Source: Bacteroidota bacterium (GTDB taxonomy: Bacteria > Bacteroidota > Ignavibacteria > UBA10030). From it: DNA of 41,855 nt. Each line of letters starts with the position of its first letter. Position 1 is the stretch's first letter. The stretch covers positions 1 to 41,855 of the forward strand of contig JACVXU010000018.1 in assembly GCA_015661185.1 (NCBI GenBank), in the 5' to 3' direction. This document shows, piece by piece, positions 5,185-37,614 of the stretch. A program made the position numbers and the translations under genes. The notes below the pieces were generated by a model. It worked only from the letters and a program-made list of their open reading frames with translations, did no database searches and was not told the origin of the DNA.

Positions 5185-5439
5185 TTGACGCGTACTACGC
5201 CACTGATGATTTACCTCGTTCCCGGGAAATGCGATTTCTGCGGCTGCTGCGTTGGTGTTTGTCCGGAAGACGCCATTGAGCTCCTGGAGTCTGAGATCCG
5301 GATTCTCGATGAGCGCTGCACGAATTGTCGCAAATGCGTCTGGGCTTGCCCCTGGGAAGTCATCGAGTTCCATCGCGAAGGCATCGAACACCTCCCAAAG
5401 GAAGTATCGGTACCCCAGGAAAATCCACCATCATTCTGA
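5185..5439 (+). CDS. 2[4Fe-4S] ferredoxin
   Basis: This is a small electron carrier of 84 residues with two complete cluster motifs: C16-x2-C19-x2-C22-x3-C26-P and C45-x2-C48-x2-C51-x3-C55-P. The proposed TTG start (5185) has GAGG (5175-5178) six bases upstream; an ATG at 5206 would also retain both clusters. The gene ends 18 bases before a geranylgeranyl-reductase-type flavoprotein, and the pair is probably one operon. From this I infer that the ferredoxin is the electron donor for that reductase, as known for some archaeal geranylgeranyl reductases. A general ferredoxin role cannot be excluded. Confidence 0.9.
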   Translation: MTRTTPLMIYLVPGKCDFCGCCVGVCPEDAIELLESEIRILDERCTNCRKCVWACPWEVIEFHREGIEHLPKEVSVPQENPPSF

Positions 5440-5457
5440 GATCGTCGCTACCTCCCT

Positions 5458-6624
5458 ATGAAAGATCAATACGACGTCATTGTCGTTGGTGCAGGGCCTG
5501 CCGGGTCGACAGCCGCTCGATTCGCCGCTGCCGGAGGTGCCTCCGTGCTTCTACTCGAGAAGGACCGTGATGTCGGGTATCCGGTTCGATGTGCGGAAGC
5601 CGTGAGTCACGAGGGGGTGGTTCAGTTCATCGAACCTGATCCGCGATGGATTGCGGCGACCGTCAGCAAATTCCGTATCGTCGTCCCGAACGGGAATTCA
5701 ATCATGCCACGGCTTGACGGCATCGGATATGTCCTTGAGCGTCGCATCTTCGATTACGAACTAGCGAAGCTTGCTGTGAAAGAAGGGGCCGAAGTCATTA
5801 CAAAAGCCTACGTCTATGATTTGATCAAGGAAGATGGTGACGTCACAGGTGTGCGGGTCTTGATCAAGGATCGGAAGTTCGACATTCGGGCGAAGGTCGT
5901 CATCGGTGCCGATGGCGTGGAAAGCCGCGTAGGAAAGTGGGCTGGGATTGACACGACGTGTCATATTCATGATATGGAGAGCTGTGCACAGGTAACGCTT
6001 TCAGGGGTGGCTGTCGATGAAGGCATCCTGGATTTCTATTTTGGTGATCAGATTGCCCCGGGAGGGTATCTCTGGGTGTTCCCAAAAGGGAAAGACAGTG
6101 CGAACGTCGGCATAGGTATCAGCGTCGAGTGTGCAAAAGAGAAAGCGGCAGTCCGTTGGCTTGATGAGTTCGTGCAGAAAAAATTCCCCGATGCCGCGAT
6201 GTTGACACAAATCGCAGGGGGTGTCCCGTGTGCAAAGACGTGTGATGAAATCGTGAAAGGGAATGTCCTTCTCGTTGGCGACGCAGCTCACCAGGTGAAT
6301 CCGACGAGTGGAGGCGGAATCATCAGTGGGATGATTGGGGGAATGATAGCCGGACAAGTTGCCGGCGAGGCGATCGCGAAGAAGGACAGCTCCCATTTGA
6401 TCGAATACGGGAAGCGATGGCACAAACGCCTTGGATGGCGGCACGAAGTCTTTTACAGGATCAGGGAAGCGATTACATCTTTTTCAGATGAAACGCTCAA
6501 CAAGCTGTGCGACAGCGCGGTCAAGCTGCCTGAGGAGAAGCGAACAGTAGGTGGCCTTTTCCGGACAGCGATGTGGAATCAGCCGTCGATCTTACTCGAC
6601 ATCGCAAAGGTTTTCATTTCCTGA
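5458..6624 (+). CDS. Geranylgeranyl reductase family FAD-dependent oxidoreductase
   Basis: This family saturates the double bonds of geranylgeranyl chains on lipids, quinones or chlorophylls, using FAD. Of 388 residues, the N-terminus forms the dinucleotide-binding Rossmann motif VVGAGPAGSTAA (G11, G13, G16); YPVRCAEAVS (41-50) is the family's cysteine motif; GADGVESRVGKW lies near 151, PGGYLWVFPKG (near 201) is the substrate-cavity motif typical of geranylgeranyl reductases, and GDAAHQVNPTSGGG (near 275) is the second FAD motif. It is preceded by a ferredoxin gene. With a DGGGP-synthase-like UbiA gene 10 kb away, a role in archaeal-type ether lipid or isoprenoid chain saturation is inferred. 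Menaquinone side-chain reduction is the main alternative. Confidence 0.88.
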   Translation: MKDQYDVIVVGAGPAGSTAARFAAAGGASVLLLEKDRDVGYPVRCAEAVSHEGVVQFIEPDPRWIAATVSKFRIVVPNGNSIMPRLDGIGYVLERRIFDYELAKLAVKEGAEVITKAYVYDLIKEDGDVTGVRVLIKDRKFDIRAKVVIGADGVESRVGKWAGIDTTCHIHDMESCAQVTLSGVAVDEGILDFYFGDQIAPGGYLWVFPKGKDSANVGIGISVECAKEKAAVRWLDEFVQKKFPDAAMLTQIAGGVPCAKTCDEIVKGNVLLVGDAAHQVNPTSGGGIISGMIGGMIAGQVAGEAIAKKDSSHLIEYGKRWHKRLGWRHEVFYRIREAITSFSDETLNKLCDSAVKLPEEKRTVGGLFRTAMWNQPSILLDIAKVFIS

Positions 6625-10654: not shown

Positions 10655-11620
10655 ATGGAGTTCTCTGTGGAATCATCTCGTTTTAGCTCGCTCTCGACTC
10701 GTGTCGCGGTAGCGGTCGTGGCAATCCCAGCCATCGTCTGGACTGCGATGGAAGGGAGCTATTTCTTCTTTTTCCTTGTCGCTCTCATATCCGGCGCGTC
10801 ATTGTACGAGTTCTACATGCTTGCGGAGAAGAAGGGGGCCTATCCGTTGAAGACGCTCGGCATCGTTGGCGGATTCATCGTGAACGGAGCGTTTGTCTAC
10901 GAGCGGCTTCAGGTGGAGGTGTTTAGCTTTTTCGCTTCCCTCGGAATTCATCTTTCGATGTTCTCACAACTTCAGTTCCTGCTGGTGACCCTCCTGATGT
11001 TCGTCCTGCTCGTACTGCTGGTCGAGTTGTTTCGTCAGAAGGGATCTCCAACACTCAATGCCGGAACAACAGTGTTCGGACTCATGATCATCTCTCTTTT
11101 CTTCGGCACGCTAATCTCGATACGCGAACTTTTTCCATATGGATTCCCGGTGTCAAAATTCTTCAGCGTGAACATCGCCGGCGAAGCGGAGCTCGCGGTG
11201 ATTGCGCGATGGGGCGGCTGGACGATCATCTCGCTTCTGGCCAGCATCTGGGTTTGTGACACGGCAGCCTATTTCGGAGGTCTCACATTCGGGCGTCACC
11301 GACTGTTTGAACGCGTGAGCCCAAAGAAGTCGTGGGAAGGCGCTGTGTTTGGTTTCTTCGGCGCCCTTATCACAATGCTCGTGGCACGATCGCTCGTCCT
11401 TGACTACCTGAGGTTCCAGGACGCGCTCATCATCGGGATGGTCGTCGGTGTCTTCGGACAAGTCGGGGATCTCGTGGAGTCGCGGTTCAAACGAGATGCG
11501 GGAGTGAAGGACTCTTCGGCGATCATTCCGGGTCATGGTGGAGTGTACGACCGTTTCGACAGTCTGGTATTTGTCGCGCCCATTGTGTATCTTTACATTG
11601 ATTTTGTGGTATTATCGTGA
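10655..11620 (+). CDS. cdsA: Phosphatidate cytidylyltransferase CdsA
   Basis: CdsA makes CDP-diacylglycerol from phosphatidate and CTP at the inner membrane, the branch point for all phospholipids. The 321-residue polytopic protein has the C-terminal signature: SPKKSWEGAVFGFFGA, then GDLVESRFKRDAGVKDSS, then IPGHGGVYDRFDSL with the metal-binding acidic residues. The ATG at 10655 is followed by a short soluble tail before the first membrane segment. Its stop overlaps the GTG start of rimO by four bases. This is separate from the smaller CTP-dependent lipid kinase-like gene at 23.4 kb. Confidence 0.95.
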   Translation: MEFSVESSRFSSLSTRVAVAVVAIPAIVWTAMEGSYFFFFLVALISGASLYEFYMLAEKKGAYPLKTLGIVGGFIVNGAFVYERLQVEVFSFFASLGIHLSMFSQLQFLLVTLLMFVLLVLLVELFRQKGSPTLNAGTTVFGLMIISLFFGTLISIRELFPYGFPVSKFFSVNIAGEAELAVIARWGGWTIISLLASIWVCDTAAYFGGLTFGRHRLFERVSPKKSWEGAVFGFFGALITMLVARSLVLDYLRFQDALIIGMVVGVFGQVGDLVESRFKRDAGVKDSSAIIPGHGGVYDRFDSLVFVAPIVYLYIDFVVLS

Positions 11621-14279: not shown

Positions 14280-16076
14280 ATGCGGGCTCTCTGGAGAAGA
14301 AAAGCCAGCGCGGCATGTGGTTCGCCTGGCTTTTTCCGTTTTGTGATGTGCGGTGGCGCAATCCTCTGCGCCTTCTCCACCGCCACAGCGGCCCAGGAGC
14401 AGCGGCCCGTTGGTGCAATCACAATGAAGGGAGTCGTCTCGGTTCCTTCATCGACCGTCCGGAGGTGGATGGAAACGAAGCTGGGAGGTCCCTTTGCCCC
14501 CTCAGACGTTGAGCGAATTGTCTCCGGGTATGCTTCAGAGGGATTCCTGTTTGCCCGGATTGACTCGGTCAACTTCGTGTCGTCGTCAGATAGTGCGACT
14601 GTTGGTCTTGTCCTGTGGGTGTGGGAGGGGAAGGCGGCCTCCGTGTCATCGTTGCGAATGGATGGTATGAAATCCCTGACGAAACGAGATGTGGAAGCCG
14701 TGATCACGACGCGGGTGGGGGATCAGTTCGTTCCTGGTCTGCTGGAACAAGATATCGGGGCTTTGCTGGAACTCTACGAGAAATCCGGCTACCCATTTGC
14801 AAAGGTTGAAATTCGTGACGTCAGCTTTGTGGAGGGGAAAGATTCCGTCGCAACGACGATTTCGTTGGGGATTGAAGAGGGTGCGCTGGCGAGGATAAGC
14901 CGGTTTCGCGTTGAGGGAAACACAAGCACGAAGACCGGGGTCATCACGCGGGAAGCACGACTGACCGAAGGAGAGCTCTTTCGCGGAGATCAGCTCACGA
15001 AGGTCAAGCAACGGCTTGAGGGAATGCAATTGTTCTCGAGTGTGTCTCTGCCTGAACTCTCTGTGGACGCGGACGGCAGCGTCGGGATCTCCGTCAAAGT
15101 AGTCGAGGGCAACCCGAACCGATTCGATGGAATCATTGGCTATATCCCCTCGGGCGGGTCAGGTGCAAGCGGACATTTCACAGGGTTGCTGGACGTGCAG
15201 TTCCGCAACATACTTGGTACGGGCAGAAAGCTCGCTGCGCGATGGTACCGTGAGACCGAGAGTTCTCAGGAGATCGAACTTCGATACCGCGAACCCTGGG
15301 TGGCTTCGCTTCCCTTCAACATCGAAGCAGGATTTTCTCAACGCGTGCAGGATTCGGCGTACGTGCGCAACCGCTACAATGTCGTCGCGGAGCTCATGGC
15401 GACAGATGAGCTGGATCTCGGCGTGGTTTTCTCCAGCGAACGAGTGCTTCCGACCGAGGGGTATGGCTTCCGGGTTGCCAGCGAGAGTCGCATGACGAGC
15501 ATCGGGTTGTCAGTCTCCTATGATTCCCGAAATGATCCGATTACACCGACGAGTGGTTTGAAGTATCGGACAGAGTACCATACCGGTGTAAAGGAAATCC
15601 AGAGATCATTTCAGAAGCTTGCGAGTGATCGGAGCTCGAGTCAAAGGCTCGCGTTTGACTTTGAATATGTTTTCTCCCCGTTTCAAGCGCAGGTCCTGGC
15701 GGTGAGTCTGTACGCAAGGGATTTCCGAAGCGGCGCGATTGAACTTAGCGATCTGTTCCGGTTGGGAGGATCGAACACTCTCCGTGGGTATCGCGAGGGG
15801 CAGTTTCTCGGCTCGCGCTTGGCGTGGTCGAATCTGGAGTATCGTGTACTGGCCGGGCAACGGTCCTACGCGTTCGGATTCGTCGACGTTGGCTACATAC
15901 TGTCTCCCGAGAGGCGGGAGGCGGGGCTCTTGAAACAAGAAATCAACAGGGTCGGGTACGGTGCCGGAATTCGTCTCGACACACCTCTCGGGCTTATGGG
16001 AGTAAGCCTGGCTTTTGGAGAGGGAGATACTTTCAGTACCGCAAAACTTCATATTCGGCTGATAAATGAATTCTAA
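14280..16076 (+). CDS. BamA/TamA-family outer membrane protein (POTRA plus beta-barrel)
   Basis: A roughly 598-residue Omp85-superfamily protein that inserts or translocates proteins at the outer membrane. After a signal peptide (MCGGAILCAFSTATAA, cut before QEQ), three POTRA-like repeats occupy about residues 25-270, followed by a C-terminal barrel with the RLGGSNTLRGYREGQF-type motif (the conserved lid-lock loop) and a last strand ending in FGEGDTFSTAKLHIRLINEF. It is shorter than classical BamA (five POTRAs), so TamA-like or a specialised paralog is possible. The ATG at 14280 lies 5 bases after the previous stop; an in-frame GTG at 14256 is an alternative start. The 3' end overlaps the next gene by 11 bases. 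Confidence 0.88.
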   Translation: MRALWRRKASAACGSPGFFRFVMCGGAILCAFSTATAAQEQRPVGAITMKGVVSVPSSTVRRWMETKLGGPFAPSDVERIVSGYASEGFLFARIDSVNFVSSSDSATVGLVLWVWEGKAASVSSLRMDGMKSLTKRDVEAVITTRVGDQFVPGLLEQDIGALLELYEKSGYPFAKVEIRDVSFVEGKDSVATTISLGIEEGALARISRFRVEGNTSTKTGVITREARLTEGELFRGDQLTKVKQRLEGMQLFSSVSLPELSVDADGSVGISVKVVEGNPNRFDGIIGYIPSGGSGASGHFTGLLDVQFRNILGTGRKLAARWYRETESSQEIELRYREPWVASLPFNIEAGFSQRVQDSAYVRNRYNVVAELMATDELDLGVVFSSERVLPTEGYGFRVASESRMTSIGLSVSYDSRNDPITPTSGLKYRTEYHTGVKEIQRSFQKLASDRSSSQRLAFDFEYVFSPFQAQVLAVSLYARDFRSGAIELSDLFRLGGSNTLRGYREGQFLGSRLAWSNLEYRVLAGQRSYAFGFVDVGYILSPERREAGLLKQEINRVGYGAGIRLDTPLGLMGVSLAFGEGDTFSTAKLHIRLINEF

Positions 16077-16905
16077 GACGCTAAATCCGAAAATCGAAAT
16101 CCTTCGTCCCGTCAACGTGGCGATTGTTTTCGTGACGATAGGGGTTGCTGGAGTGCTGGCGAAACCTGCCGGCTGGGATTGGGCCTGGGTTTTCATTGCT
16201 TCCATTGCCGGGGCATTGATCGCAGGCGGCGGAAACGCGATCAATGATATCTTCGATGTGAAAATCGACAAGATCAACCGACCTGACCGACCCTTGCCGC
16301 GAGGTGCACTGTCGCTGGAAGAGGCAAGGAAGTTGTGGATCTACACATCAGCGGCTGGACTCATCTTGAGCTTGTCCCTCGGTTTCTGGAATGTGCTCAT
16401 AGCCCTCGTATGGGTTGGTGGGCTCTATGGCTACAGCCGCTCTCTGAAAGGAACCGTGCTCGTTGGCAACGTGACGGTAGCGTTCTTGGCAGCGCTCGCA
16501 TTTCCGTTCGGAGCAATCCTTGCCGGCCGTGCGGACCTTGGGTTGTATCCTGGCATCTTCGCATTCCTCGCCAATCTTGCGAGGGAGCTCTTGAAGGATG
16601 TCGAAGACGTTGACGGCGACGCAACCGTGAACGCCGAGACGCTCCCCGTAAAGCACGGCCCCGAAGCCGGTCTGTGGGCAGCGTCGATCGTAATCGGCGT
16701 TCTCATGCTCGCAACACTTATTCCCTTCGTCGCCGGCATCTATGATCTCCGTTACCTGTTGGGAGTGCTCTTTGTCAATCTCGGCCTCGCCTACGTCGTA
16801 GTATCGATGTGGTACGATCCAACGCTGTCGAATTTGAAGCGGCTAAGTCTTATCTTGAAAGCGTGTATGGTGGGCGGGCTATTCGCCATATTCGCGGGCT
16901 CCTGA
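16066..16905 (+). CDS. UbiA-family prenyltransferase, archaeal DGGGP-synthase type
   Basis: A 279-residue polytopic prenyltransferase. The first metal-binding motif is N60-D61-x2-D64-x3-D68 followed by KINRPDRPLPRG, and the second is KDVEDVDGD (177-185) within LARELLKDVEDVDGDA, then ETLPVKHG. This combination, with short loops and a small size, fits geranylgeranylglycerol-phosphate geranylgeranyltransferase (DGGGP synthase), which adds the second C20 chain in archaeal ether lipids, better than MenA or UbiA. It overlaps the BamA-like gene by 11 bases and is followed at 2 bases by rnhB. Together with the geranylgeranyl reductase at 5.5 kb it suggests isoprenoid ether lipid chemistry; a menaquinone or other prenyl-acceptor role is the alternative. 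Confidence 0.85.
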   Translation: MNSKTLNPKIEILRPVNVAIVFVTIGVAGVLAKPAGWDWAWVFIASIAGALIAGGGNAINDIFDVKIDKINRPDRPLPRGALSLEEARKLWIYTSAAGLILSLSLGFWNVLIALVWVGGLYGYSRSLKGTVLVGNVTVAFLAALAFPFGAILAGRADLGLYPGIFAFLANLARELLKDVEDVDGDATVNAETLPVKHGPEAGLWAASIVIGVLMLATLIPFVAGIYDLRYLLGVLFVNLGLAYVVVSMWYDPTLSNLKRLSLILKACMVGGLFAIFAGS

Positions 16906-22116: not shown

Positions 22117-23451
22117 ATGAAGAACGGTGAGTCACTTGCTGCCCCTGCCGCGAATCCGCAAGTAGAAACTCTTACCTTCGATACACACCTTTCCAACCTG
22201 AAGTCCGATTTTATTGCTTTGTGGCAAAGCACCTCCGAAGAATTCCCTCAGTTTGTGAGGGAGTATAACCACGAGGAACAGCGAGCAACTGAGGCAGAGG
22301 TGGAGAAGACAATCCTATCCATGGAGGACTTCGATCTGAATTCCGAAGAAGCCTCAATGCTCCAGTTGCAGCAAGTAAGAGCAGTAGTGCGAAATCTGGT
22401 TGTGCGTTCGCTCGACCCTGAGCATCGTGAGGTCACAGACATGATGCTGCGCGAGTTTTCAGATGCGGGAGACGAGTTTGTGCGCCAGGCGAGGGAGTTT
22501 GATCCCGAGCTCGAAGTCGGTGATGTATTTCAGGCTCTCCGCAATCTCTGGATCATCAACAGCATGCAGGTTGCATTCTCACTGCCCGTGTGCGTGAATC
22601 CATCCGGGCTTGCATATAGCTTGTTGTATCCGTACACGGACAACTTCCTCGATGCTTCGGCAGTTTCCTGGGCTGAGAAGAATGCCTTTCATCGAACGGT
22701 CGCCCGCCGGCTTGCGGGGTTTAGAACGCCGGTCGCAACGAGGCTCGAGTCGAGAGTCTCAGATCTCGTCGAGATGATTGAATCCGAATACACGCGCACA
22801 GCCTATCCGATTGTCTACGAAAGCCTGCTCGCTATCCATCGGGCTCAAGAAAGGAGCCTTCGGCAACAAACCGGGGGGGTAGGCCGGACTCAGCCGGACA
22901 TCCTCGACATCAGCATAGAGAAGGGAGGAGCATCAGTTCTTGCTGACGCGTATCTGGCCAAGGGCTGGCTTGCTCAGGAGGAGGCGGAGTTCGCGTTCGG
23001 ATATGGCGTATTTCTCCAGTTCATCGACGACCTGCAAGACGTTCATGAAGATCTGCGAAACGGTCATCAGACCCTCTTCACGCTGGTTGCAGCCAAAGGA
23101 GCGCTGGACGGGATAACCAACCGCCTTTACCGATTCCTGAACCAGGTTCTCGAATCCTCGGATCTCCACTCTCTCCATCATTCAACACCGCTTGCTGAGC
23201 TCGTAAGCCGGAGTTGTCGCCATCTCATCCTGGAATCGATTGCCCGGAACTCGAAAATGTTCAGCAGCAACTATGTCAGGACCGTCGAAAGGTATTCGCC
23301 GCTCCGATTCGATCAGATACGCAAGATGCACAGAGAGTTGAAGGCAAAGCAGAAACACTTGAGGAAGGTGTTCAAGAACAGGCGAGTCCTCTCAGCGGCA
23401 GCATCGTGTGCAAGACCGACAAAGCCGACGGCAGATTGTGAAACTCGCTAG
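22117..23451 (+). CDS. Class I isoprenoid synthase-like protein
   Basis: A 444-residue, mostly helical soluble protein. Two aspartate-rich motifs are spaced as in class I isoprenoid synthases: YPYTDNFLDAS with D175-N176-x2-D179 (a DNxxD variant of DDxxD) and QFIDDLQDVHEDL with D304-D305-x2-D308. These would bind Mg-diphosphate of a prenyl substrate. The protein is longer than ordinary trans-prenyl chain-length synthases (about 300-330) and lacks their usual FARM context, so it may be a terpene synthase or another divergent branch. The N-terminal 100 and C-terminal 60 residues (basic, KAKQKHLRKVFKNRR) are unassigned. Its stop shares the CTAG tetranucleotide with the stop of the convergent gene. 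Confidence 0.65.
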   Translation: MKNGESLAAPAANPQVETLTFDTHLSNLKSDFIALWQSTSEEFPQFVREYNHEEQRATEAEVEKTILSMEDFDLNSEEASMLQLQQVRAVVRNLVVRSLDPEHREVTDMMLREFSDAGDEFVRQAREFDPELEVGDVFQALRNLWIINSMQVAFSLPVCVNPSGLAYSLLYPYTDNFLDASAVSWAEKNAFHRTVARRLAGFRTPVATRLESRVSDLVEMIESEYTRTAYPIVYESLLAIHRAQERSLRQQTGGVGRTQPDILDISIEKGGASVLADAYLAKGWLAQEEAEFAFGYGVFLQFIDDLQDVHEDLRNGHQTLFTLVAAKGALDGITNRLYRFLNQVLESSDLHSLHHSTPLAELVSRSCRHLILESIARNSKMFSSNYVRTVERYSPLRFDQIRKMHRELKAKQKHLRKVFKNRRVLSAAASCARPTKPTADCETR

Positions 23452-24161
23452 ATGAGCCGGTAGAGATCGACGGCGGGAAGCAGAAGGGCATAAAGAGCCC
23501 ACAATGTGAAGCCGACGCTCAGCGGAACAGTGATGTTGTCATCGATCTTGGTGGAAGCAGCCTCAACAACAGCGCCGACGCCTGCGGCAATGATCCCGAT
23601 CCCATATTCAAGCGCCAGCCCTTCTACTTTAGGGGCAAGAAACACAACAACAATGGCGGACACGAAAAACGCCAGGGTTCCCTCAAGGGATTTCTGGAAG
23701 AATCTTCTCCTGCCGAACCGCCTCCCCACGAGAGCTGATGTAATATCCGAAATGATGAGGATGGCGAATGCATTGACCGCAATGATCTTGGGGAAGATCA
23801 GGACGCAGACAATGGCTGATAGAAGGATGTTCGTCGCCCCGGTCAGCCGCTTTGTCTTGGAATCTGATTCGTGTCGACGCAGAAGCCAGCCGAACCATCG
23901 ATAGAACCACGCTTGCGTTGGCTCATGGTAGAATCTGGCCAGATCAACAACAAAGAAGGCAAGGAACGTTGGCACAAGAAGCTCGAGAGCGAGTTGTTTT
24001 GAAATGAAGAAGTAAATAGTAGGGATGGAAAGCGAGCAGAGGTGAATCAGCTTCCGGATGAATTCGGATCTGTAGTCGATTGTCGCCATCGCGTGAAGGA
24101 GCTCCGGCTCACGCGTACCGTGAGTCGGAGTCTCTTGCACGTCTGAAGGTGTCTCACTCAT
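23448..24161 (-). CDS. CTP-dependent lipid kinase-like membrane protein (Dgk1/SEC59/VTE5 family)
   Basis: A 237-residue polytopic membrane protein with the hallmarks of the family that includes yeast CTP-dependent diacylglycerol kinase, dolichol kinase and plant phytol/farnesol kinase: EFIRKLIHL at the first membrane segment, [25 protein letters not shown] and a late DDNITVPL. These enzymes phosphorylate lipid alcohols with CTP. Its ATG overlaps the ftsH stop (ATGA), so it is translationally coupled as the last gene of the tilS-hpt-ftsH series. The substrate (diacylglycerol, undecaprenol, phytol or geranylgeraniol) cannot be read from the sequence. An alternative start is Met25. Confidence 0.75.
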
Positions 24162-30339: not shown

Positions 30340-33135
30340 ATGGTCAGAAGATCGCTCGTGCTCATTGGTGTCCTGATGTTGTCGCTTGGATTGGGGATTT
30401 GTTTCGGCCAGTCGCTCCAATCACAACTCACGCAGAAACTCCATCCGGCCTTTCAAGCTCTTGTTGCCAACGAATTACCGACCGCGGCAATCAAGGTGAT
30501 GGCGGATGGGCGCGGACCTTCCGGGATGACCAAAGAAGGGGAGCCTCTGTATGACGCGATCATAACGACCACGAACGCAGCTGCGGTGCGAGCCGCGGGT
30601 ATTCATCTCAACTCCGTTTTTGGAAAGATAGCGACTGCTCGTCTCACAAAACAACAACTATTAACCCTGGCACAATCGGATGCGGTTCAGTACCTCGATC
30701 CCGGTTCCATCAACTATCCTCAGATTGACCTCAGTGTGCCGGAGATAGGAGCTACCCTTCTCCATGCAGGATTCTTGAACAAGACGCCGTACAAAGGCAA
30801 AGGGGTCATAGTCGTCATCTACGACACGGGGATCGACTGGCGGCATCATGATTTCCGCGATCCGTCCGACACGACGAAAACGCGCATCTTGTCGATCTGG
30901 GATCAGACGCTTACGGCATCGTCCGGTTCGGGTGAAGCACCGCCCGCAGGATTTACCTACGGCGTAGAGTACACAAAACAGCAGATCGAGAACGAAATCG
31001 ACGGTTCACCGGCCAACTTTGTCCGCGAAAAAGATATCAATGGTCATGGCACTCACGTGGCAAGCACAGCGGCCGGGAATGGCAGTTCCCATTTCAACAA
31101 GTATATCGGCGTCGCGCCGGAGGCAGATATCGTGGTCGTGAAGGGTGGTGATGAATCGTTTTCTGAGTCCGGAATGATTAACGGCCTAACGTACGCGGCG
31201 AACAAGGCAGCCGCGCTCTCGAAGCCAGTCGTCGTTAACTGGAGCATTGGCGGCCAGACCGGCCCGCACGATGGAACCCGCGGCTATGAGGTTGCAGTCG
31301 ATAACTTTGTGCAGACACCCGGCCGGGTCGTCGCAATCTCGGCAGGCAATGACGGCGCTCGGATAATGCACTCAGAAGGAACGATTTCTTCCGGCGGTGC
31401 TGCCACGATATCCGTGAACGTGCCAACGTTCACGCCGACTGCAGGCGCGGATAATGACAAGTTCACGCTCGAAGTATGGTTCAATAGTAGCATTGGTTTG
31501 ACGGCCACGGCGACGTCTCCAAGTGGCATTTCTGTTTCTGCCTCGACCGATGCCAGTAGCAGCGCGGCGAACAACAACGATGGTTCGATCGATTTGTTCA
31601 ATTCCAAAGGGAGCAATGGAAACCGTTTCATTCAACTGGCCGTTCGCGACCGCGACACTTCAAAGGTGACGAAATCAGGGGTCTGGACACTGGCGCTTTC
31701 GTCGGTCACGAATGCTGCGGCATATGATGCATGGCTGTCATCCTCGACAGTGGGATCATCCACGGTGACGATCGTTGGCGGCAATGCACAAAAAACAGTT
31801 TCAAGTCCCGGCACCTCTTTTGGGGCCATCACCGTCGCTTCTTGGGTCACGAAAAACAGCTGGGTGTCGGTTAACGGCTCTGGCTATGTCTACTCGGGTA
31901 CAGCAAATCCGGTGCTCGGTTCGATTTCGACCTTCAGCAGCGTCGGACCAACCGCCGATGGTCGAACCAAACCCGACATCGCTGCCCCGGGGCAAGGGGT
32001 CTCGGCCGCCCTGTCGGGCTGGGCTGAGCCAGCGACTGCGATAACGCGAATCACGGCAGACGGGAAACACTTTGTTACGCAGGGCACCAGCATGGCGTCG
32101 CCGCATGTAGCCGGAGCGGCAGCCCTCTTGTTGGAGATCTCGAAGACAACCTCCGCTGCTCAAATCAAGTCGCTCTTGTCGACTACCGCGATTGTGGATG
32201 CATCGACTGGAACAGTGCCGAACACCACGTGGGGAAATGGGAAAATCGATTTGCTCAAAGCTGCAGCGAAGGCGCTCAACCCACAGGTAACAGTTCAACG
32301 TCAGATCCTGGCATACGATACCGACGGAACGAGCAACATCTTCTCTCAGTATCTTACCGGGACAACGAAATACGCATTGCGTTTCACGCCATCGATATCG
32401 GGAGAACTGACCGGGATGCAGTTCAATACCACGACCATCACTAACAGGTCAATCGTTGGTGCGGGGCCACTTATTTGTGAGGTATGGACGAATGTCGCCG
32501 GCAGTTCTGCGGGTGTCCCAGGTGTAAGAATCGGAAACACAGTTCAGTATGCATTCGCCCGACTCACGCAAGGGACGAATTCCTTCATCGACATGGTGCC
32601 GACCGGAGTTATAGTAACTGCAGGACAAGACTATCATCTCGTTGTCTCAACGGCCAATACCCAGGACACGATCAAGCTCAGGACGGATGTGAGCCCAGCC
32701 GTGCCCACAAACCGATCGTCGATCTACACAGGGGGTCGTTGGCTCAATTTGGTCGACCCGAGTTCCGGAATTTCGTCTCCTGCGAACCTTCGCATCAGGG
32801 CGGTCGTGACGTCTTCGTCAGGGCTCGTCTCTGCGCGGAATGAAACCGGCGTTCCTACGGTGTTCGAGCTCTTGCAGAACTACCCCAATCCTTTCAATCC
32901 TACAACCACGATTCGTTACAGCGTCCCGGCGCAAGGGCGTGTGCGCCTCCGTGTCTTCGACCTTGTCGGAAGGGAAGTGGCTTCGCTTGTTGACGAGGAG
33001 GAAGCGAGTGGCAGCTATCTCATCAATTGGCGGGGGACCGACAACTACGGCAGGTCCCTTGCGAGCGGCGTGTACTTCTACAAGCTGGATGGCCCGGGTC
33101 AGCAGATAACGAAGAAGTTGATATTGTTGAAGTGA
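30340..33135 (+). CDS. Subtilisin-like (S8) protease with T9SS sorting domain
   Basis: A 931-residue secreted serine protease. Order of parts: signal peptide (about 1-24), a propeptide ending near 130 at INYPQ, and the S8 catalytic domain with D162 (VVIYDTGIDW), H236 (NGHGTHVAS) and S584 (GTSMASPHVAG). The H-to-S distance of about 350 residues includes a beta-rich insertion. A beta-sandwich follows (about 650-830), then the type A type IX secretion signal from about 841 (LLQNYPNPFNPTTTIRYSVP) to the final KKLILLK. It is thus sent across the outer membrane by T9SS and probably attached to the surface or released. It forms a unit with the propeptide-like lipoprotein upstream and is followed by a strong hairpin. 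Confidence 0.95.
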   Translation: MVRRSLVLIGVLMLSLGLGICFGQSLQSQLTQKLHPAFQALVANELPTAAIKVMADGRGPSGMTKEGEPLYDAIITTTNAAAVRAAGIHLNSVFGKIATARLTKQQLLTLAQSDAVQYLDPGSINYPQIDLSVPEIGATLLHAGFLNKTPYKGKGVIVVIYDTGIDWRHHDFRDPSDTTKTRILSIWDQTLTASSGSGEAPPAGFTYGVEYTKQQIENEIDGSPANFVREKDINGHGTHVASTAAGNGSSHFNKYIGVAPEADIVVVKGGDESFSESGMINGLTYAANKAAALSKPVVVNWSIGGQTGPHDGTRGYEVAVDNFVQTPGRVVAISAGNDGARIMHSEGTISSGGAATISVNVPTFTPTAGADNDKFTLEVWFNSSIGLTATATSPSGISVSASTDASSSAANNNDGSIDLFNSKGSNGNRFIQLAVRDRDTSKVTKSGVWTLALSSVTNAAAYDAWLSSSTVGSSTVTIVGGNAQKTVSSPGTSFGAITVASWVTKNSWVSVNGSGYVYSGTANPVLGSISTFSSVGPTADGRTKPDIAAPGQGVSAALSGWAEPATAITRITADGKHFVTQGTSMASPHVAGAAALLLEISKTTSAAQIKSLLSTTAIVDASTGTVPNTTWGNGKIDLLKAAAKALNPQVTVQRQILAYDTDGTSNIFSQYLTGTTKYALRFTPSISGELTGMQFNTTTITNRSIVGAGPLICEVWTNVAGSSAGVPGVRIGNTVQYAFARLTQGTNSFIDMVPTGVIVTAGQDYHLVVSTANTQDTIKLRTDVSPAVPTNRSSIYTGGRWLNLVDPSSGISSPANLRIRAVVTSSSGLVSARNETGVPTVFELLQNYPNPFNPTTTIRYSVPAQGRVRLRVFDLVGREVASLVDEEEASGSYLINWRGTDNYGRSLASGVYFYKLDGPGQQITKKLILLK

Positions 33136-34382: not shown

Positions 34383-37300
34383 CTACCGTTTCTGCGTCGT
34401 GTCCCGCTGGTTGCTGTCGCCGAAGAGCCAAACCGAGTACACAATATTTTTTGCTTCTTCGTTTTTTGGATTCATCATTGCGGCTTGAAGCGCATAACCG
34501 ACGGCTCTCGGTGAGTTGCCAAGTTCGCGGTAGCACTTCGCGAGCTGAACGAGTAGAAGGTCCTGAGGCACCCTTCGATCAGGCGCGTAGCGCTCACGAA
34601 TCTGCAGGGCTTTGCGATAGCTGTCGAATGCCTTCTGGTACTGTTGAATTCCGAAATAGAAATGCCCGAGTCGCACTCGATAGTAATCGACGGTGTCCGC
34701 AGTGAGCTCGACGCAGCGCTTGAGTAGCTTCTCGGCCGCCGCTGCATCGAAGGAGATGAACGAACTCGCAAGACTTCGCTTTCTTGAATACTTCGTCCAT
34801 GCTAGCTCATCCAGAAGCACCGGGTCGTTTGGTGTTAACTCAGCAAGCCTCTCAAGGTAACCTATGCGTTCTTCATGTCTTCCCAGCCGACCGGTCAGCG
34901 AGGCAAGGCCGGCTAGCGCGCGGCCATCCCTCGGGTGTGCGCCTAGGTAGGCCGCAAGCATGGAATGTCCAACCGAGACATTCCCTCTATCAAGCGCTGC
35001 ATGAAACAACCCGATATTGAGCCTTTCTTGCTCCGTCAGAGGCCTTTTCTCCAACAGTTGATCCAAGAGCAAGTTCGATTTGCCGAAGACCGTTCGCTCG
35101 TCAAGGCGATCCAGACCGCCAGCTCCGCGATTGGCGAAGAAAGCCCGCGGCGCCCAATGTTCGAGCAGAGGCTTGTCCTCTGTGTTCAAAGGACCGTCAC
35201 TTGCGTACTCACGAAGTGGTTTTTCGGAGATCATCTGCAAAGACAGCAACGTGGCTGCATCAAGAATCTGGATTCGCGCCAGGTCGGCCTTCACAGCAGC
35301 GCCGGTTAGTTTCTGGACGAGTTTTTCTTCGTCGATGCGAATCGGTTCGGTCGAGCCGACAAAGATCACGTCTTTCGCCAACGACTGCCATACCATGATG
35401 TGAGGGAACACAGTACGAATCGTCCTGACCACAAGTCTAAAGGACTCGTCATCGATTTCATATAGCTGGAGCCACTGCACCATGAGCCCATCGGCCTTCA
35501 GTCTCTCCTTGCACAGTTGGAAGAACTCCGTTGTGAACAAGTTGCCAACGCCGGCTCTCCACGGGTTGGACGGCTGACTGATAATCACATCGTATTTTAC
35601 CTGTGTGAGTTTTAGGGTAGCCAGAGCGTCGTCCACATGCAGGCTGAGCCGGGGATCTGAAAGTGGTCGGTTATTAACATGCTCGAAGAGTCTCGAAGCT
35701 TCAATGACCTCAGGAGAGATCTCTGCGCTTTCAACATACTTCACGGGATGCGCAAGCACGCTTCCAACCGTCACGCCACTACCGAATCCGACCACGAGGA
35801 CCGTGTCAGGCTGAGGATGGAGCATCATCGGCACCTGGCCGACAAGAACCTGTGTCGGGAGATCGTTGAGGGACGACGCATCAGCCTTGCCATTAATCAG
35901 AAGAACGAGTTGCGGTCCGAGTGGGTGCTCGTACACGCCGACTGTCGCTGCTGCCCCCTCCTTGTAGAAAAGGACCTTGTTGGCTGTTACAGTCTTCTCA
36001 AATTCTGAATAGCTTGCCGGAGGAGTTCGATTGTTCCCGATTTGGCGAAATACACCCGAGAACATCACGCTCTGATTCCAATCAGAGCCGAAGATAAATG
36101 ACAGATACGCCAGAATCGCGACGGGAGCCACCAGCACGACGCGACGAAGCTTCGAAGACGCGTCGTCGAAGTACATCAGAACAATCCCACAGCCAAGGTT
36201 GAGGAGAAATCCAACTTCCATCGCATGGCGCACTCCGATCAGTGGCATCAATACAAGCCCAGCTGCCAACGATCCTATCACTGTGCCGACGGTGTTCACG
36301 GTAAAAACCGTTCCAACAGTTCTCCCGAGGACAACGACTGAACGGGTGGCGATACGACTCGCCAGAGGAAGTGACATCCCCAGGAAGATCGTCGGGATTA
36401 TCATGATCATGAAGCAGATAACGAATTGGAGAATTAGAAAGATCGGATATGTCGCTTCTGATGGGGTTAGGATCGCACCCAGGTGCCAGAACAGGTACGG
36501 AATGCGACCATAGAGCGGAAGTGTTAAGGCCATCGAAATTCCGACCCCCAGCTGACAGAGCGCCAGCGCTCCGAAAAGATTCCTGATACGCCCTATGAAA
36601 ACTGCGACAAGCCAGCTGCCAAGTGTGATCCCCGAAATAAATGCCACAAGCATGAGGGTGTATGAGTACGTGGAGGATCCCAGGACATGAATCAGCAATC
36701 GTACCCACGCAACTTCGTATATCATTGCGGCAAGACCGGAAAAACCGGCAACACCGACTGCCAGGAAAACCTGCAGGTCCGTCGATGGTTGACTTTCGGG
36801 CTCGCTCACCGTCTCTGTTCCGCCTGCCAACTCAGCATACGTTCTGGCCCCGAGGAGGAATGCTATGCCCGCGATCACGATATTGATGATACCTGCGCTG
36901 ATGACTGTAGCCTGAAGACCTGCCATCGGCACGAGAAAGAAGCCGCAAAGCAGCGAGCCCATAACAGCTCCAAAGCTGTTCAGAAAATAGAGTGTCGCGA
37001 CATTTTTCCCGGACTCCTCCACACTGTGCGAGATGAATCGTACCAACACGGGCAAAGTTCCCCCCATGAGAATTGTCGGGAAAAGAAGCAAGACCACGCT
37101 TGTGAGGAACTTCAGGAAGAGAACTGCGGTACCGTCGCTCGGGAGTTGGAGGGCGTGAACTGTGAAAACGAAGGCGCTCTTCGCAACGTTGAGCAGGAAG
37201 GGAAAAAGGATGCAGTAGACTCCGATAAGGAGTTCCAGTCCGCCATAGATTCTGATAGGCGACTTAGAACGGTCAGCGCGTCGTCCCCAGAGCGAAGCCC

Positions 37301-37469
37301 CGATCGCTAGCCCGCCCATAAACGTTGCCAATACGATGGTCTGAGCATACGTGGTGTTGCCAAAGAACAGCGAGATGTACTTGAACCAGGCAATTTGGTA
37401 GACCAGACCGGTTGCACCTGAGACGATAAAAAGAGTGGCGATGATACCGTACATGGTTTGCTTGCTCAT
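34383..37469 (-). CDS. Membrane/spermidine synthase-like fusion protein with TPR repeats
   Basis: A 1028-residue protein with three parts. Residues about 7-500 hold roughly a dozen membrane helices in an MFS-like pattern (GATGLVYQIAWFKYISLFFG, then FMGGLAIGASLWGRRADR, with a second similar half). Residues about 540-720 form a spermidine-synthase Rossmann domain: VLVVGFGSGVTVGSVL (near 553), ESAEISPEVIEASRLF, HVDDALATLK and DVIISQPSNPWRAGVGNLFT. The C-terminal 200 residues form TPR-like helical repeats. Such fusions are common in environmental bacteria, but their reaction is not established; polyamine synthesis in the strict sense is doubtful. Met17 of the longest frame (37469) is chosen because MSKQTMYGIIATL begins the first membrane helix. 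Confidence 0.85.
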   Translation of the reverse strand: MSKQTMYGIIATLFIVSGATGLVYQIAWFKYISLFFGNTTYAQTIVLATFMGGLAIGASLWGRRADRSKSPIRIYGGLELLIGVYCILFPFLLNVAKSAFVFTVHALQLPSDGTAVLFLKFLTSVVLLLFPTILMGGTLPVLVRFISHSVEESGKNVATLYFLNSFGAVMGSLLCGFFLVPMAGLQATVISAGIINIVIAGIAFLLGARTYAELAGGTETVSEPESQPSTDLQVFLAVGVAGFSGLAAMIYEVAWVRLLIHVLGSSTYSYTLMLVAFISGITLGSWLVAVFIGRIRNLFGALALCQLGVGISMALTLPLYGRIPYLFWHLGAILTPSEATYPIFLILQFVICFMIMIIPTIFLGMSLPLASRIATRSVVVLGRTVGTVFTVNTVGTVIGSLAAGLVLMPLIGVRHAMEVGFLLNLGCGIVLMYFDDASSKLRRVVLVAPVAILAYLSFIFGSDWNQSVMFSGVFRQIGNNRTPPASYSEFEKTVTANKVLFYKEGAAATVGVYEHPLGPQLVLLINGKADASSLNDLPTQVLVGQVPMMLHPQPDTVLVVGFGSGVTVGSVLAHPVKYVESAEISPEVIEASRLFEHVNNRPLSDPRLSLHVDDALATLKLTQVKYDVIISQPSNPWRAGVGNLFTTEFFQLCKERLKADGLMVQWLQLYEIDDESFRLVVRTIRTVFPHIMVWQSLAKDVIFVGSTEPIRIDEEKLVQKLTGAAVKADLARIQILDAATLLSLQMISEKPLREYASDGPLNTEDKPLLEHWAPRAFFANRGAGGLDRLDERTVFGKSNLLLDQLLEKRPLTEQERLNIGLFHAALDRGNVSVGHSMLAAYLGAHPRDGRALAGLASLTGRLGRHEERIGYLERLAELTPNDPVLLDELAWTKYSRKRSLASSFISFDAAAAEKLLKRCVELTADTVDYYRVRLGHFYFGIQQYQKAFDSYRKALQIRERYAPDRRVPQDLLLVQLAKCYRELGNSPRAVGYALQAAMMNPKNEEAKNIVYSVWLFGDSNQRDTTQKR

Positions 37470-37614
37470 AAGGGGATCGTCCGAATGACAGTGATATTGC
37501 CCCGATACAGCGGACACAGAGTGAAGCGTGAATTAGTGAGCCTACAGGAACAACTGGTGACACGGTGTCGATGAAAACGTCGTCTTGTTGAATGCAAAGG
37601 GGATGACATCCATC

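What the first reader, a model, noticed from the sequence alone, without database searches (positions are those of the whole stretch)
16066..16905. DGGGP-synthase-like prenyltransferase in a bacterium, part of a dispersed isoprenoid-lipid gene set
The UbiA protein carries NDxxDxxxD followed by INRPDRPLP and a KDVEDVDGD second motif, the combination of archaeal digeranylgeranylglyceryl phosphate synthase. The same window holds a geranylgeranyl reductase with its own ferredoxin (5185-6624), a class I isoprenoid synthase (22117-23451), a CTP-type lipid kinase (23448-24161) and cdsA. Some FCB-group bacteria are known to carry archaeal-type ether lipid genes. The set here lacks G1P dehydrogenase and GGGP synthase, so a complete pathway is not shown.
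Basis: partly seen in the sequence, partly recalled or inferred. Interest (0 to 1): 0.72.

Follow-up and report, generated by a model that had tools for sequence, protein, structure and literature searches.

The report
Archaeal-type ether-lipid enzyme in Ignavibacteria
A bacterium of the Ignavibacteria carries the gene for the enzyme that adds the second isoprenoid chain to archaeal-style membrane lipids, and its genome also holds the first-chain and chain-saturating enzymes; this is a further case of something already reported for this group of bacteria, with the source of the archaeal glycerol backbone still missing.

Summary
The UbiA gene at 16066-16905 is a digeranylgeranylglyceryl-phosphate (DGGGP) synthase-type enzyme. 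It carries both Asp-rich motifs and an R173-E174-K177 signature. I found that signature in all 54 FCB and 29 archaeal homologues, but not in chlorophyll synthase or in this genome's CtaB, MqnP-like and DPPR-synthase-like proteins.

The genome is a 99.3%-complete Ignavibacteria-type MAG. G1P dehydrogenase and CarS were not detected.

In 61 genomes of the class, GGGP synthase and DGGGP synthase occur together in 28 and are both absent in 33. The window's geranylgeranyl reductase follows them in 27 of 28, and is absent from the other 33. A ferredoxin gene lies just upstream of the reductase in 25 of 27, as in Methanosarcina acetivorans. In six genomes the reductase sits beside DGGGP synthase. So the ferredoxin-reductase pair belongs to the set. 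The isoprenoid synthase at 22117 and the 'kinase' at 23448 do not: the first is mostly found where the set is missing, the second is in 60 of 61 genomes.

GGGP and DGGGP synthases in Ignavibacteria and other FCB bacteria, usually without G1P dehydrogenase, are published (PMC6431249, PMC7852524). This is a new member of a known kind. Enzyme activity and lipids are untested.

The parts
16066..16905 (+). DGGGP-synthase-type UbiA prenyltransferase (279 aa)
16243..16269 (+). first Asp-rich motif N60-D61-x-x-D64-x-x-x-D68, followed by N71-x-P73-x-R75
   Evidence: invariant in 54 FCB and 29 archaeal homologues except one R75T
16582..16620 (+). second motif with DGGGP-synthase signature R173-E174-x-x-K177-D178-x-x-D181-x-x-x-D185
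   Evidence: R173, E174 and K177 invariant in FCB and archaeal DGGGP-synthase-type rows; I-A-N in chlorophyll synthase, F-D-Y in MqnP, E-E-A in a second FCB UbiA clade
5206..5439 (+). 2x[4Fe-4S] ferredoxin (77 aa), likely electron donor of the reductase
   Evidence: Pfam Fer4; homologue just upstream of the reductase in 24 of 26 other class genomes tested
5458..6624 (+). geranylgeranyl reductase (388 aa), nearest solved structure T. acidophilum 3oz2
   Evidence: TIGR02032 over cut-off, GGR_cat, 3oz2 E=2e-68; co-occurrence and linkage
10655..11620 (+). CdsA, general phospholipid CTP transferase; could stand in for the undetected CarS (inference from PMC7852524)
   Evidence: Pfam CTP_transf_1 E=7e-52; no CarS in the genome

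Best explanation
The gene encodes a membrane-embedded, Mg2+-dependent UbiA prenyltransferase that moves a geranylgeranyl group from GGPP to the free hydroxyl of geranylgeranylglyceryl phosphate, giving digeranylgeranylglyceryl phosphate (DGGGP). Upstream, GGPP would come from the IdsA/GGPPS-like synthase next to a type 2 IPP isomerase (contig C99) and GGGP from the GGGP synthase on C399. Downstream, the reductase at 5458-6624, fed by the ferredoxin at 5206-5439, would saturate the chains, and CdsA could activate the product for head-group addition. The cell also has PlsY and a GpsA-like protein for ordinary ester lipids, so the predicted outcome is a bacterial membrane with some archaeol-type lipid. 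Shown here: sequence, signature residues, tree, gene set in the genome, co-inheritance and linkage. Inferred: activity, substrate, stereochemistry and lipid product. Unknown: the source of G1P, as no G1P dehydrogenase was detected.
For: Motifs and R-E-K signature shared with archaeal DGGGP synthases; 6m31 E=6e-31. Careful tree: all DGGGP-synthase-type rows (plus the E-E-A clade) against chlorophyll synthases 100/100, window inside an Ignavibacteria branch 94/93, window-with-chlorophyll-synthase rejected by the AU test at p=0.03. GGGP synthase over the TIGR01769 cut-off, nearest F. johnsoniae GGGPS 4jej. In 61 class genomes GGGPS and DGGGPS are both present in 28 and both absent in 33; reductase in 27 of 28 and 0 of 33; concordant within one mixed family. 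Reductase within 510 bp of DGGGPS in 6 genomes and at 9-10.5 kb in 6, window included. Ferredoxin upstream of the reductase in 24 of 26 others, as in M. acetivorans, where it was needed for saturation (PMC4244643). Other UbiA roles have their own genes: CtaB, MqnP-like beside UbiX/UbiD, DPPR-synthase-like. Cloacimonetes GGGPS and DGGGPS worked in E. coli (PMC7852524).
Against: No G1P dehydrogenase or AraM detected: the best hit in this genome is AroB, and the two class hits examined, both among the strongest, are glycerol-dehydrogenase-like and AroB. No CarS. Scores lie below NCBIfam's narrow equivalog cut-offs (201.6 of 269; 191.4 of 296). The genes are scattered over contigs and not one operon. 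No activity or lipid data.
Confidence: 0.8

Rival explanations
1. The enzymes act on G3P, so the product is a homochiral (G3P) isoprenoid ether lipid made without any G1P.
For: No G1P dehydrogenase detected in the class; a GpsA-like protein is present; GGGP synthase of Cloacimonetes accepts G3P to some extent (PMC7852524).
Against: The same paper reports strong preference for G1P, and E. coli strains without AraM still made G1P ether lipids.
Confidence: 0.3
2. GGGP and DGGGP synthases run in reverse and break down archaeal lipids taken up from dead archaea.
For: Proposed for FCB lineages without G1P dehydrogenase (PMC6431249).
Against: The set travels with a ferredoxin-linked geranylgeranyl reductase, which fits synthesis better than breakdown; no uptake genes were noticed near it.
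Confidence: 0.05
3. The UbiA protein is a quinone, chlorophyll-type or other aromatic prenyltransferase and the co-occurrence is incidental.
For: UbiA proteins serve many pathways and have spread by transfer (PMC6431249).
Against: Signature residues and tree; this genome has separate MqnP-like and CtaB proteins; 28 of 28 co-occurrence with GGGP synthase.
Confidence: 0.07
4. The enzymes make a minor prenylated glycerol lipid with a special role rather than a bulk membrane lipid, as heptaprenylglyceryl phosphate in Bacillus.
For: PlsY and GpsA-like proteins are intact, so ester lipids can carry the membrane; [quoted passage not shown] subtilis (PMC13400652).
Against: The presence of a second-chain enzyme and a saturating enzyme points to a full diether.
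Confidence: 0.35

Closest known systems
Archaeal DGGGP synthase (M. jannaschii, PDB 6m31)
   Same: UbiA family, both Asp-rich motifs, R-E-x-x-K-D signature, K128, G134-N135
   Different: 29% identity; bacterial host; partner GGGP synthase on another contig; no G1P dehydrogenase or CarS detected
GGGP/DGGGP synthases of FCB bacteria (Cloacimonetes, PMC7852524; 12 FCB phyla including Ignavibacteria, PMC6431249)
   Same: Same two enzymes, geranylgeranyl reductase also present, G1P dehydrogenase and CarS not detected in the Cloacimonetes MAGs either
   Different: Another FCB lineage; here the reductase is shown to be co-inherited and linked with DGGGP synthase and to have its own upstream ferredoxin gene
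Ferredoxin-dependent geranylgeranyl reductase of Methanosarcina acetivorans (reviewed in PMC4244643)
   Same: Ferredoxin gene directly upstream of the reductase
   Different: Bacterial; dependence on the ferredoxin not tested

Membership tests
DGGGP synthase (archaeal-type UbiA) | UbiA prenyltransferase domain | tested here: met
   Pfam PF01040 E=6e-37
DGGGP synthase (archaeal-type UbiA) | NDxxDxxxD and DxxDxxxD metal-binding motifs | tested here: met
DGGGP synthase (archaeal-type UbiA) | R-E-x-x-K-D signature shared by archaeal enzymes and absent from other UbiA branches (derived here) | tested here: met
   R, E and K in 29 of 29 archaeal and 54 of 54 FCB rows; not in ChlG, MqnP, CtaB, DPPR-synthase-like or the E-E-A clade
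DGGGP synthase (archaeal-type UbiA) | Groups with archaeal DGGGP synthases against chlorophyll synthases | tested here: met
   100/100 in the careful tree
DGGGP synthase (archaeal-type UbiA) | Groups with archaeal DGGGP synthases against MenA/MqnP, CtaB and DPPR synthase | tested here: inconclusive
   Quick tree keeps them out, but on very long branches with an open base; MenA itself was not included
DGGGP synthase (archaeal-type UbiA) | Transfers geranylgeranyl to GGGP | not testable with these tools
   needs an assay
NCBIfam equivalogs PRK12884 (prenyltransferase) and PRK12882 (GGGP geranylgeranyltransferase) | Score over curated cut-off | tested here: not met
   201.6 of 269 and 191.4 of 296 bits
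Archaeal-type ether-lipid pathway as in FCB bacteria | GGGP synthase in the genome | tested here: met
   C399:20990-21691, TIGR01769 205 of 161.6 bits
Archaeal-type ether-lipid pathway as in FCB bacteria | Geranylgeranyl reductase | tested here: met
Canonical archaeal pathway | G1P dehydrogenase (EgsA/AraM) | tested here: not met
   only AroB found in this genome; no clear G1P dehydrogenase among the class hits, of which the two examined were GldA-like and AroB
Canonical archaeal pathway | CDP-archaeol synthase CarS | tested here: not met
   PF01864: no match in the genome
Ferredoxin-dependent geranylgeranyl reductase | Ferredoxin gene immediately upstream | tested here: met
   5206-5439 then 5458-6624; 24 of 26 other class genomes

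The most novel reading that the evidence does not exclude
About half of the sampled Ignavibacteria-type class inherits, as one block kept or lost together, a working route to saturated archaeol-type lipids with a ferredoxin-driven reductase, and feeds it with G1P from an enzyme that is not EgsA/AraM and has not been identified.
Probability: 0.4. Interest if true: 0.7.

Novelty: new member of a known kind. Interest (0 to 1): 0.42.

Why it matters
It adds an Ignavibacteria case, with a GGGPS-DGGGPS-reductase block that is co-inherited in the class, to the evidence that the archaea/bacteria lipid divide is leaky. The 28-versus-33 split of otherwise related genomes is a ready comparison set for finding the unknown bacterial source of G1P: the missing enzyme, if specific, should follow the same pattern.

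Tried and rejected
(1) The isoprenoid synthase at 22117-23451 as part of the set: of 120 relatives it is in 17, mainly families f2 and f4, whose three genomes sampled for the set lack GGGPS, DGGGPS and the reductase. (2) The 'kinase' at 23448-24161 as part of the set: present in 60 of 61 class genomes; Foldseek against PDB gave no significant match, with archaeal lipid enzyme 5guf only at E=1.5. (3) G1P dehydrogenase by PF13685: only AroB in this genome; the strongest class hit (G216) is glycerol-dehydrogenase-like and another (G243) is AroB. (4) CarS: none. (5) Viral contigs: no relatives. (6) Assembly contamination as the source of GGGPS: the C399 protein is closest, among the loci fetched, to GGGPS of same-family genomes (71% and 66% identical), so it is most likely native.

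Full report
What is there. The + strand ORF 16066-16905 encodes a 279-aa UbiA-family membrane prenyltransferase. It overlaps the end of a BamA-like gene by 11 bases and is followed by rnhB and yraN. The nearest solved protein is the M. jannaschii DGGGP synthase 6m31 (E=6e-31), far ahead of chlorophyll synthase (4e-10).

Where it comes from. The best named relatives of the protein are Ignavibacteria and Ignavibacteriales MAGs. Four of them (L070-L073) keep nearly the same gene order over about 20 kb, from the heptosyltransferase-like gene to the cstA and lipid-kinase-like genes. The window is contig C192 of a 4.33-Mb, 445-contig genome, 99.3% complete with 3.5% contamination. The core cdsA-rimO-GWxTD-bamA-ubiA-rnhB-yraN is widespread in the Ignavibacteria loci.

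Is it a DGGGP synthase? I aligned 54 named or sampled FCB and 29 archaeal DGGGP-synthase-type loci, the window and 6m31 with other UbiA proteins. Residues R173, E174 and K177 of the second motif are invariant in the FCB and archaeal rows. They are replaced in chlorophyll synthases, in this genome's MqnP-like, CtaB and DPPR-synthase-like proteins, and in a second FCB UbiA clade (E-E-A). A careful IQ-TREE run separates the DGGGP-synthase-type rows (with the E-E-A clade) from chlorophyll synthases at 100/100 and puts the window with Ignavibacteria sequences at 94/93. Placing the window with chlorophyll synthases is rejected at p=0.03. Whether FCB rows form one clade apart from archaea is not decided (p=0.17). 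MqnP, CtaB and DPPR synthase stand outside in a quick tree, on branches too long to trust. NCBIfam's own equivalog cut-offs are not reached; those models are narrow.

The rest of the pathway in this genome. GGGP synthase is on C399, over the TIGR01769 cut-off, nearest F. johnsoniae GGGPS 4jej, and 66-71% identical to GGGPS of same-family genomes. A short-chain (IdsA/GGPPS-like) synthase lies next to a type 2 IPP isomerase on C99. No G1P dehydrogenase and no CarS were found. PlsY twice, with a GpsA-like protein between, indicates that ordinary ester lipids are also made (GpsA named by eye). Other UbiA functions have their own genes, including an MqnP-like protein beside UbiX-like and UbiD-like proteins.

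Phyletic evidence. In 61 sampled genomes of the class, strong DGGGPS and GGGPS hits coincide exactly: 28 with both, 33 with neither. The reductase of the window (5458-6624) has a strong hit in 27 of the 28 and in none of the 33. Fisher p-values (5e-18 and 2e-16) ignore relatedness, but the pattern also holds inside one family that has both kinds of genome (9 and 7; p=9e-5 and 1e-3). G1P dehydrogenase was not clearly found in any of them: most PF13685 hits are weak, and the two examined, both among the strongest, are glycerol-dehydrogenase-like and AroB; the remaining weak hits were not examined one by one.

Linkage. The reductase gene lies within 510 bp of DGGGPS in six genomes, 9-10.5 kb away in six (the window among them) and 19 kb away in one. 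In a named Melioribacteraceae MAG (L095) the order is reductase, ferredoxin, then divergent DGGGPS. A ferredoxin ORF sits just upstream of the reductase in 24 of 26 other genomes, 57-84% identical. In M. acetivorans a ferredoxin gene upstream of the reductase was needed for saturation of archaeal lipid in E. coli (PMC4244643). In a Lokiarchaeota contig (L143) reductase, GGGPS and DGGGPS lie in one run, with a relative of the window's 'kinase' in front.

What does not belong. 22117-23451 has the class I isoprenoid-synthase fold (AlphaFold2 pLDDT 84; VIA-align Z 14-16 to polyprenyl and terpene synthases) but is mainly found in families of the order whose sampled members lack the ether-lipid genes. 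23448-24161 is in 60 of 61 class genomes.

Compared with what is known. Coleman et al. 2019 (PMC6431249) report GGGPS and DGGGPS in all 12 FCB phyla surveyed, Ignavibacteria included, and G1P dehydrogenase in only two. Villanueva et al. (PMC7852524) showed activity of the Cloacimonetes enzymes in E. coli, noted reductases, and found neither G1P dehydrogenase nor CarS in those MAGs. The present case fits both. What I did not find in the papers read is the co-inheritance and linkage of the ferredoxin-reductase pair with DGGGPS in Ignavibacteria; the library is incomplete, so this is not a claim of priority.

Mechanism, shown and inferred. Shown: gene set, signature, tree position, co-inheritance, linkage. 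Inferred: GGPP plus GGGP gives DGGGP; ferredoxin-fed reductase saturates it; CdsA activates it. Unknown: G1P source, stereochemistry, amount of lipid.

Noticed in passing
22117-23451: Class I isoprenoid-synthase fold with invariant D175-N176-D179 and D304-D305-D308-D312 (consensus DNxLD and DDLQDxxED) but no Pfam or NCBIfam family; in 17 of 120 relatives, mostly families f2 and f4. A family absent from both libraries, product unknown.
   Followed up: partly
23448-24161: Membrane protein after ftsH, weakly CTP-transferase-like, in 60 of 61 class genomes; a relative heads the Lokiarchaeota reductase-GGGPS-DGGGPS run.
   Followed up: partly
L150-L156: Second UbiA clade in Ignavibacteria-type and family f20 genomes (f20 is probably Chlorobiaceae) with E-E-A in place of R-E-K, nested beside archaeal DGGGP synthases; f20 genomes have no strong GGGP synthase hit. 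Substrate unknown.
   Followed up: partly
L143:2895-6788: Lokiarchaeota gene run: kinase-like protein, geranylgeranyl reductase, GGGP synthase, DGGGP synthase.
   Followed up: no
L237, L238 (contig C305): Two different PlsY proteins flank a GpsA-like protein in this genome; PlsY has been reported to accept both glycerol-phosphate stereoforms (PMC13400652).
   Followed up: no
16066-16905: DGGGP synthase is only 47-51% identical to its nearest syntenic relatives while several neighbours (cdsA, rimO, GSU2086-like, nicotinate genes) are 61-77%: it changes fast.
   Followed up: no
30340-33135: Subtilisin-like protease whose C-terminus (NYPNPFNPTT...ITKKLILLK) looks like a type IX secretion sorting domain (by eye).
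   Followed up: no
34383-37517: 1044-aa protein with a spermidine-synthase domain and C-terminal TPR repeats.
   Followed up: no
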